A stretch of DNA of 32,639 nt from Pseudomonadota bacterium. GTDB lineage: Bacteria > Pseudomonadota > Gammaproteobacteria > GRL18. Below the pieces are notes generated by a model. It had not been told where the DNA came from. It saw only the letters and a program-made list of their open reading frames with translations, and ran no database searches. The stretch spans positions 1 through 32,639 of the forward strand of contig JADFVK010000174.1 of NCBI GenBank assembly GCA_015222495.1, read 5' to 3'. The position numbers and the translations under genes are program-made. Every line of letters starts with the position of its first letter. Positions within the stretch are counted from its first letter, which is position 1. Below are positions 941 through 18,529 of the stretch, piece after piece.

Positions 941-1045
941 TAATTAAGAGCCCTCAGCCAACATAACAAGGCCACCATAAATTGTAGTAACATTAAATTT
1001 CTATAATTTATGGTGGTAAAACTTTTGTTATTCAAGAGCTAATTA
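941..1045 (+). repeat. Structured intergenic repeat, copy A
   Basis: TTAAGAGCCCTCAGCCAA motif; perfect 12-bp stem CCACCATAAATT (972-983)/AATTTATGGTGG (1005-1016), GTAG/CTAT extension, loop TAACATTAAATTT; outer ATAACAA/TTGTTAT and TAATTA/TAATTA pairing; shares motif and loop with copies B, C and D. Confidence 0.75.
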
Positions 1046-6020: not shown

Positions 6021-6120
6021 TTAAGAGCCTTCAGCCAAACTTGAATTTAGCCAGCATCATTTGTAGTAACATAACAACTACACAATGATGGTGGAAAAAT
6101 TTAAGTTACTTAGAAGGCTT
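6021..6120 (+). repeat. Structured intergenic repeat, copy B
   Basis: TTAAGAGCCTTCAGCCAA motif; nested helices AGCCTTC (6026-6032)/GAAGGCT (6113-6119), AACTTGAATTT (6038-6048)/AAATTTAAGTT (6097-6107), CCAGCATCATT (6051-6061)/AATGATGGTGG (6084-6094), GTAG/CTAC; loop TAACATAACAA. Confidence 0.75.
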
Positions 6121-9987: not shown

Positions 9988-10037
9988 AAATAGTCATTCT
10001 CATTAATCGTTTGGAAATGGTGTATAAAACGCACTTC

Positions 10038-10140
10038 GGTATGCAGGTTATAGTTCAGGAGGACGCTCAAGCACATCCATGTGTCGCTCAGCCTCGCCAT
10101 CCATGGCTCGAAAAGCCTCCTGAATTATAACCTGCATACC
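10038..10140. repeat. Hyper-palindromic element 1 (25-bp outer arms)
   Basis: GGTATGCAGGTTATAGTTCAGGAGG (10038-10062) / CCTCCTGAATTATAACCTGCATACC (10116-10140), one mismatch; internal mini-hairpins ACATCCATGT and GCCATCCATGGC. Confidence 0.9.
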
Positions 10141-10174
10141 AAATTGCTCTTATGTCATTTCCTCTCTGGGGGCG

Positions 10175-10296
10175 GAAGAGCAAAAGAAAAAGCTAGAGCT
10201 AGAGCAAAATCAAGGTTCATCATAGAAATGTGAAACTGCTTGTTGTTACGGGCTCTCTTTTTATTGCTTTGGACTTTTCTTTTGCTTTTGCTCTTC
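10175..10296. repeat. Inverted repeat between the two hyper-palindromes
   Basis: GAAGAGCAAAAG (10175-10186) / CTTTTGCTCTTC (10285-10296). Confidence 0.5.
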
Positions 10297-10335
10297 AACC
10301 TCCAAAAGTGAGGATAAATACAGTGGGAGAGTGTG

Positions 10336-10440
10336 CAGAGAAGTAGTTGGCATTATTGGGGATTATGAAAACATGGATGTTTTCATATAGCGTGCCATGG
10401 ATGGCCTTGAGCGTCCCCAATAATGCCAACTACTTCTCTG
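10336..10440. repeat. Hyper-palindromic element 2 (27-bp perfect outer arms)
   Basis: CAGAGAAGTAGTTGGCATTATTGGGGA (10336-10362) / TCCCCAATAATGCCAACTACTTCTCTG (10414-10440); internal hairpins ATGAAAACATGGATGTTTTCAT and GCCATGGATGGC. Confidence 0.92.
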
Positions 10441-10519
10441 TGCAATCGTTCCTAAAGTACTTATCCGAACGCCACCCCTTCTTTTGTCTCTTGATCTTTT
10501 TTAACCCTAAGTATAGCCA

Positions 10520-15402: not shown

Positions 15403-15497
15403 TTAGGAGCCATCAGCAAATAAAATTGTGCCGCTGTCGCTTTGCTAACATTATAATAGCAAATAAGGCAGTGGAATAACTTTATGTTAGATAAGAG
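15403..15497 (+). repeat. Structured intergenic repeat, copy C
   Basis: TTAGGAGCCATCAGCAAA motif; stem TTTGCTA (15441-15447)/TAGCAAA (15457-15463), CCGCTG (15431-15436)/CAGTGG (15469-15474, one G-U); loop within CTAACATTATAATAG; outer AAATAAAATT pairing region. Confidence 0.65.
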
Positions 15498-18431: not shown

Positions 18432-18529
18432 ACTCTTTGTTAACAAAAATTTTGCACAAATCATTTTAAGTGTATTTAATGTTACTAAAAATGATTCATG
18501 CCAATTTTTTTGGCTGTGGGCACTTCTAA
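18432..18529 (-). repeat. Structured intergenic repeat, copy D (inverted orientation)
   Basis: Reverse complement reads TTAGAAGTGCCCACAGCCAAAAAAATTGGCATGAATCATTTTTAGTAACATTAAATACACTTAAAATGATTTGTGCAAAATTTTTGTTAACAAAGAGT; same TAGTAACATTAAAT loop as copy A; stem 18459-18470/18485-18496. Confidence 0.65.

What the first reader, a model, noticed from the sequence alone, without database searches (positions are those of the whole stretch)
941..1045. Copy A of a four-member structured intergenic repeat with conserved loop and covarying stems
Seen directly: four ~100-nt intergenic segments (941-1045, 6021-6120, 15403-15497, reverse complement of 18432-18529) share a 5' motif (TTAAGAGCCCTCAGCCAA, TTAAGAGCCTTCAGCCAA, TTAGGAGCCATCAGCAAA, TTAGAAGTGCCCACAGCCAA) and an apical loop beginning TAACAT(T)A. 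The stems between them differ in sequence yet still pair: A CCACCATAAATT/AATTTATGGTGG, B CCAGCATCATT/AATGATGGTGG, C TTTGCTA/TAGCAAA plus CCGCTG/CAGTGG, D AATCATTTT/AAAATGATT. Conserved loop and 5' motif with variable but paired arms implies selection on structure. Inference: a structured RNA, or a folded-ssDNA mobile element (REP/MITE-like), abundant in this genome (4 in ~18 kb). I do not recognise it as a named family.
Basis: partly seen in the sequence, partly recalled or inferred. Interest (0 to 1): 0.85.

Follow-up and report, generated by a model that had tools for sequence, protein, structure and literature searches.

The report
Mobile hairpin repeat tagging its own end
The four look-alike hairpins are members of a large, previously unnamed family of roughly 90-base mobile DNA repeats found only in one order of deep-sea sulfur bacteria, and the tip of each hairpin carries a five-letter tag that matches that copy's own right-hand end, which hints at how such elements recognise themselves when they move.

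Summary
The four intergenic segments share a 5' block, a conserved loop and variable but pairing arms. They are members of a large family: about 70 matches in this 76%-complete MAG and about 80 units per Mb in a relative (a Taylorina symbiont). The family occurs in three of four sampled Thiohalomonadales genera. None of about 660 sampled class-level genomes outside the order has it, and Rfam has no match.

It is mobile. Empty sites exist in relatives. Isolated copies sit 3' of a short degenerate A-A-G-(A/T) target and carry their own ...(T/C)AAGAG right end. Tandem arrays share one such junction.

New here: five loop bases (x1x2AAC) are complementary to the element's own terminal GTTy2y1 and covary with it across subfamilies (GTAAC/GTTAC, CAAAC/GTTTG, CTAAC/GTTAG, AGAAC/GTTCT). 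In G006, 80 of 89 copies form all five pairs. G·T over A·C bias points to the + strand as the folded one.

The mobilising enzyme was not found. RAYT/Y1, IS110 and TnpB genes do not fit, no recurrent neighbour exists, and orientation shows no replication bias. Best reading: a non-autonomous, strand-specifically folded mobile repeat working like REP or IS200/IS605-derived miniature elements, but failing tested defining features of both. ssDNA versus RNA remains open.

The parts
950..1038 (+). Copy A, type 1 unit (element proper): GCCCTCAGCC ... GTTATTCAAGAG; left flank target TTAAGA at 944-949
   Evidence: boundaries from the flank profile; absent at the yajQ-dsbC junction of G006
950..959 (+). 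Copy A conserved 5' block GCCCTCAGCC (consensus GCCnnCAGCC)
   Evidence: alignments
972..987 (+). Copy A 5' hairpin arm CCACCATAAATTGTAG
987..991 (+). Copy A loop tag GTAAC, complementary to the tail (G.U at one pair)
1001..1016 (+). Copy A 3' hairpin arm CTATAATTTATGGTGG
1027..1031 (+). Copy A tail GTTAT that pairs with the loop tag
1032..1038 (+). Copy A right terminus TCAAGAG
   Evidence: right-end profile
6027..6116 (+). Copy B, type 1 unit; loop tag GTAAC 6066-6070, tail GTTAC 6105-6109, terminus TTAGAAG 6110-6116
15409..15497 (+). Copy C, type 3 unit with the compensated tag: loop CTAAC 15445-15449, tail GTTAG 15486-15490, terminus ATAAGAG 15491-15497
18433..18521 (-). Copy D, type 2 unit; loop tag GTAAC 18485-18481, tail GTTAA 18444-18440 (4 of 5 pairs), terminus CAAAGAG 18439-18433
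   Evidence: 39-nt gap between the flanking genes in G006

Best explanation
A family of roughly 89-91-bp non-autonomous mobile elements. Shown: copies are inserted in intergenic DNA just 3' of a short degenerate target (about A-A-G-A/T), with no long target duplication and no terminal inverted repeat at the extreme ends. They end in their own GTTy2y1-N-(T/C)AAGAG. The + strand is the one under selection to fold into a long hairpin. The five-base loop tag is complementary to the GTTy2y1 just upstream of the right terminus and is kept so by compensatory change. Inferred: an enzyme supplied in trans acts on the folded + strand, most likely as single-stranded DNA. The tag-tail pairing, formed in trans or after the lower stem opens, marks the right end for cutting, much as guide sequences pair with cleavage sites in IS200/IS605 elements (established knowledge of that family). 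The enzyme joins the piece after an AAG-type target. Insertion beside a resident copy, or tandem duplication, makes the arrays. A host function is not needed to explain the pattern.
For: Copy number and restriction to one order. Empty sites: copy A against G006, where yajQ and dsbC are nearly adjacent; copy D; L059/L136 with the empty junction GGGAAG|AAAATAA, L047/L147 and L023/L152. Asymmetric ends in 114 isolated left flanks and 85 right ends: only about 6 nt conserved on the left, the last 12 nt of the element on the right, then no conservation. Loop-tail covariation: 93% of cells paired against 83% shuffled, covariation score 0.327 against 0.146 with 0/500 shuffles reaching it, and 20-54% paired when slid. 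RNAalifold found only this pairing on the diverse alignment. Within G006: 48/51 GTTAC tails with GTAAC/GTAAT loops, 23/26 GTTTG tails with fully pairing loops (20 of them CAAAC), 2/2 GTTCT with AGAAC, and no GTTTG tail with a GT-type loop. Strand asymmetry: G.T 221 against A.C 53 raw, 91 against 46 after de-duplication by context. Clusters in G006 are nearly all intergenic, in every gene orientation.
Against: No autonomous parent or recurrent neighbouring gene was found. Orientation shows no replication-strand bias (45 against 42), whereas lagging-strand bias is expected for IS200/IS605-type transposition. The only Y1-fold gene found in the window's own incomplete MAG has lost the HUH motif. 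Loop-tail pairing cannot form in cis while the full stem (mean 28 aligned positions) is closed. G.T bias is expected for RNA as well as for ssDNA.
Confidence: 0.55

Rival explanations
1. The folded molecule is RNA: the element is transcribed, and the RNA hairpin acts as a guide (loop tag against the DNA of the element's own right end) or as a retro-mobilised RNA, used by an unknown recombinase or reverse transcriptase.
For: G.U tolerance on the + strand; loop-tail complementarity that geometry puts in trans, comparable in logic to bridge/seek RNAs pairing with their own donor ends; no replication-strand bias.
Against: IS110 transposases are absent from G000, G005 and G006, the three genomes richest in copies. 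Reverse transcriptases are not found in G005 and are patchy. No promoter or expression evidence. The target side shows no loop-dependent sequence.
Confidence: 0.2
2. Ordinary REPs mobilised by a RAYT (Y1 transposase).
For: Abundant, intergenic, palindromic, singletons plus clusters; RAYT-like genes of about 236-241 aa occur in G005 and G006, and the one read, from G005, has an intact NHVH motif.
Against: About 90 bp rather than 20-40 bp, with no GTAG or CGTC tag at an end (PMC3733652). No copy within the loci around the Y1 genes. Y1 genes of this length also occur in G001 and G013, which have no copies. Few copies lie between convergent genes (4 of 53), unlike REPs.
Confidence: 0.1
3. A host-serving element: transcription terminator, attenuator or small RNA gene that happens to be repeated.
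For: Strong hairpins with a T-run on the 3' side of type 2 units; many copies lie just after stop codons.
Against: Convergent gene pairs are rare (4 of 53) and all orientations occur. Orthologous sites are empty in relatives. Tandem arrays. A terminator role would not explain loop-tail covariation.
Confidence: 0.06
4. Integron attC-like recombination sites.
For: Folded single-strand sites, arrays, a GTT near the right end.
Against: Tails GTTACTY, GTTTGAT and GTTAGAT do not fit the attC GTTRRRY core; units carry no cassette genes; attC sites have no conserved apical loop.
Confidence: 0.02

Closest known systems
REP elements / REPINs with RAYT transposases
   Same: High-copy extragenic palindromes, strand-specific hairpin with a fixed 5' block, singletons and clusters, presumed mobilisation in trans
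   Different: 89-91 bp instead of 20-40 bp, no GTAG or CGTC end tag, no associated RAYT, same-orientation tandem arrays, loop tag complementary to the right end, rarely between convergent genes
IS200/IS605 family and its miniature derivatives (PATEs)
   Same: Target motif in the left flank with a related motif inside the right end; hairpin close to the right end; internal sequence complementary to the region of the right cut
   Different: One hairpin instead of two ends; the complementary tag is in the hairpin loop and pairs upstream of the terminal motif; no lagging-strand bias; no matching TnpA identified
IS110/IS1111 bridge (seek) RNAs
   Same: RNA-like hairpin loop complementary to, and covarying with, the element's own end
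   Different: No DEDD transposase in the genomes richest in copies; target not specified by a loop; far smaller and non-coding
MITEs, ERIC and RU repeats
   Same: Small non-autonomous intergenic repeats
   Different: No terminal inverted repeats at the extreme ends and no detectable target-site duplication
Integron attC sites
   Same: Imperfect hairpins that can lie in arrays
   Different: Core sequence does not match, conserved loop, no cassettes

Membership tests
REP (RAYT-associated) | 20-40 bp palindrome tagged at one end by GTAG or CGTC | tested here: not met
   Unit is 89-91 bp and begins GCCnnCAGCC after an AAG-type flank; definition from PMC3733652
REP (RAYT-associated) | Cognate RAYT gene flanked by the repeats | tested here: not met
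   No unit in any of the Y1_Tnp loci tested and no high-copy segment near the Y1 genes of G000, G005 and G006; definition from PMC2817692
REP (RAYT-associated) | High-copy, extragenic | tested here: met
   About 80 units per Mb in six nearly complete contigs of G006; nearly all intergenic
IS200/IS605-derived miniature element | Insertion 3' of a short fixed target, no target duplication, asymmetric ends | tested here: met
   Flank and end profiles, empty sites; the exact junction is inferred because relatives are only about 75-85% identical, and the target is degenerate rather than strictly fixed
IS200/IS605-derived miniature element | Two hairpin ends and a cognate Y1 transposase with the same ends | tested here: not met
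   Single hairpin per unit; the ends of the IS200-like copies differ; no autonomous parent in 1.83 Mb of G006
IS200/IS605-derived miniature element | Lagging-strand orientation bias | tested here: not met
   45 lagging against 42 leading, on contig-level GC skew of a draft genome
IS110/IS1111 bridge RNA element | DEDD transposase (PF02371) available in the genome | tested here: not met
   Zero matches in G000, G005 and G006
Integron attC | Core GTTRRRY / RYYYAAC boxes | tested here: not met
   Observed tails GTTACTY, GTTTGAT, GTTAGAT
Any Rfam RNA family | Score at or above the gathering threshold | tested here: not met
   No gathering match at the four sites; best low-threshold scores for A and C far below thresholds
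MITE of a DDE transposon | Terminal inverted repeats and target-site duplication | tested here: not met
   Ends GCC... and ...AAGAG are not inverted repeats; the left AAG-type motif is a degenerate target, not a copy of the right end

The most novel reading that the evidence does not exclude
A minimal self-addressed mobile element: a 90-base hairpin, as RNA or ssDNA, whose loop is a guide that recognises, in trans, the element's own right end. Different subfamilies in one genome carry different matching addresses, and an unknown enzyme reads the address. Array junctions carry matching tags: 23 GTTAC-GTAAC and 3 GTTTG-CAAAC, with no cross pairing between these two tags.
Probability: 0.18. Interest if true: 0.9.

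Novelty: new variant of a known kind. Interest (0 to 1): 0.62.

Why it matters
It adds a mobile repeat family in which an internal loop and the element's own terminus co-evolve as a complementary pair. If the pairing works as a guide, this is a very small natural example of address-based self-recognition in DNA mobility, with several distinct addresses in one genome. It may also help explain fragmentation of Thiohalomonadales symbiont assemblies, since several contigs of the window's MAG end inside these repeats.

Tried and rejected
Rfam at gathering and at low threshold: nothing. IS110/bridge RNA: enzyme absent from the richest genomes. RAYT/Y1: not adjacent and not correlated; the genus-wide roughly 280-aa Y1-like protein, read in the window's genome, lacks the HUH motif. 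TnpB and reverse transcriptase: no correlation with copy number. Search for an autonomous parent with split ends in 1.83 Mb of G006: none. Recurrent neighbouring genes: none beyond a broad cluster of what look like signalling proteins. Replication-strand bias: none (the 61-cluster sample showed a non-significant trend that vanished). Viral contigs, exact pattern: no match. A per-column count of G.T against A.C gave only 18 against 9, so the strand claim rests on the context-deduplicated count. Orthology of copy B with a G006 copy upstream of the same cytochrome gene was unclear.

Full report
Observation. Each folds better than dinucleotide shuffles on the stated strand, strongly for A and B (z -5.4 and -8.8) and moderately for C and D (z -2.6 and -2.5). 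A BLAST search with copy A finds the repeat in many contigs of the same MAG. A covariance model from 15 copies finds 72 matches, including some reverse-strand echoes of the palindrome. A broader sequence model finds 73 in G000, 85 in G005 and at least 151 in G006. In six nearly complete contigs of G006 (1.385 Mb) I count 111 units with score at least 25, about 80 per Mb.

Taxon and range. G006 has the contig sizes of JAHXIV01, a MAG from a symbiont of the lucinid clam Taylorina. PMC9938160 reports that T. solomonensis carries symbionts of the order Thiohalomonadales, family SZUA-152; I infer the window's order from this. The element is present in 18 of the 24 genomes of the order that are held (3 of 4 genera). 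In two class-level samples of 291 and 387 genomes, only genomes of the window's own genus matched. An exact pattern found it in no viral contig and, among named genomes, only in the Taylorina symbiont and in one MAG labelled Pseudomonadota bacterium CSMAG_1671.

Anatomy. The unit starts with GCCnnCAGCC, continues into a long hairpin with variable arms, has an apical x1x2AAC(A/G)T, and ends GTTy2y1-N-(T/C)AAGAG. Three types occur: type 1 (A, B), type 2 (D) and type 3 (C). Units also stand in same-orientation arrays with a period of about 90 bp, in which one TYARRAG junction is shared by neighbours.

Mobility. The yajQ-dsbC interval that holds copy A is nearly closed in G006. The site of copy D has 39 nt in G006 instead of about 105. 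Further empty sites are L059/L136, L047/L147 and L023/L152. In the first of these, the empty GGGAAG|AAAATAA is split so that the left gene reads into the element. Profiles over 114 isolated left flanks and 85 right ends show the asymmetry. On the left only about six bases are non-random (W-T-A-A-G-A/T). On the right the last 12 bases of the element are conserved and the flank beyond is close to random. So the left motif is a target preference and the right motif belongs to the element. Because the relatives are diverged, the junction is inferred to within a base or two.

Loop-tail pairing. The loop pentamer is complementary to the GTTy2y1 of the tail. On a 37-copy alignment from several species, 93% of cells pair against 83% in shuffles, with 15 double-changed cells against 4.5. 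No shuffle reached the observed covariation score, and sliding the partner drops pairing to 20-54%. RNAalifold, with no hint, predicted exactly this helix and nothing else on that alignment. Within G006, GTTAC goes with GTAAC or GTAAT (48/51), GTTTG with a fully pairing loop, nearly always CAAAC (23/26), GTTAG with CTAAC or CTAAT (3/5) and GTTCT with AGAAC (2/2). Overall 80 of 89 copies form all five pairs. Copies are related, so the number of independent compensatory events is smaller, perhaps four or five (G-C to C-G, U-A to A-U, U-A to G-C, G-U to A-U). The first two loop bases can also pair within the hairpin apex, so part of the change is three-way.

Which strand, which molecule. In the stems G.T mismatches exceed A.C mismatches, 221 to 53 raw and 91 to 46 after removing repeated contexts; a stricter per-column count gave 18 to 9. 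This points to the + strand as the folded one and does not separate ssDNA from RNA. Because the tail follows the base of a stem of about 28 aligned positions, the loop and tail of one molecule cannot meet unless the lower stem opens (inference from geometry). Pairing in trans is therefore a serious option.

Mechanism. I favour a non-autonomous element moved in trans, most probably as folded single-stranded DNA, with the tag marking the right end. The enzyme is unknown. Y1 genes carry no unit nearby. IS110 is missing from the three richest genomes. TnpB and reverse transcriptase do not track copy number. No transposase-like gene family recurs beside copies, no split parent was found, and copies show no replication-strand bias, which counts against a plain IS200/IS605 mechanism. 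Of 32 array junctions, 26 join identical full tags (GTTAC-GTAAC 23, GTTTG-CAAAC 3) and none joins one of these two tags to the other. This fits tag-directed insertion beside resident copies but also simple tandem duplication.

Comparison. The element works like REPs and IS200/IS605-derived miniatures but fails tested defining features of both (see the membership table; REP definitions from PMC3733652 and PMC2817692; IS200/IS605, IS110, attC and MITE features from established knowledge). I rate it a new variant of a known kind, with a smaller chance that it is something new.

Noticed in passing
window 10007-10510: A second multi-copy intergenic repeat of about 500 bp, with partial matches in many contigs of G005, G006, G012 and G015. 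It contains the window's only Rfam hit, TwoAYGGAY RNA (RF01731) at 10328-10448. A G006 copy also scores (L164:3511-3641), so this cis-regulatory RNA seems to travel with a repeat here.
   Followed up: partly
L125:1429-2271 (G000:C8): A 280-aa Y1-transposase-like protein in which the HUH motif reads FSDSYQIL, so it is probably catalytically dead. Y1 matches of about 280-300 aa recur as apparent single copies in most genomes of the genus, which suggests domestication; only this one was read.
   Followed up: partly
L198, at the site matching L024:406-499: The G006 site without the element carries a different small palindrome, GGGATCGGAGTCAAATGG...CCATTTGATTCCGACCCC.
   Followed up: no
L134:15675-15811 and L148:16518-16650 (G006): Two copies carry the same roughly 40-nt insertion, itself a hairpin (AGGTAGAGT...ACTCTACCT), inside the apical loop, so the loop tolerates extra structure.
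   Followed up: partly
G000 contigs C147, C155, C157, C158, C207, C211, C291: Contigs end inside these repeats, and G006 arrays contain runs of N, so copy numbers are underestimates and the repeat breaks assemblies.
   Followed up: no
L134:89-184 (G006:C44): A group II intron domain (RF01998) beside a reverse transcriptase gene.
   Followed up: no
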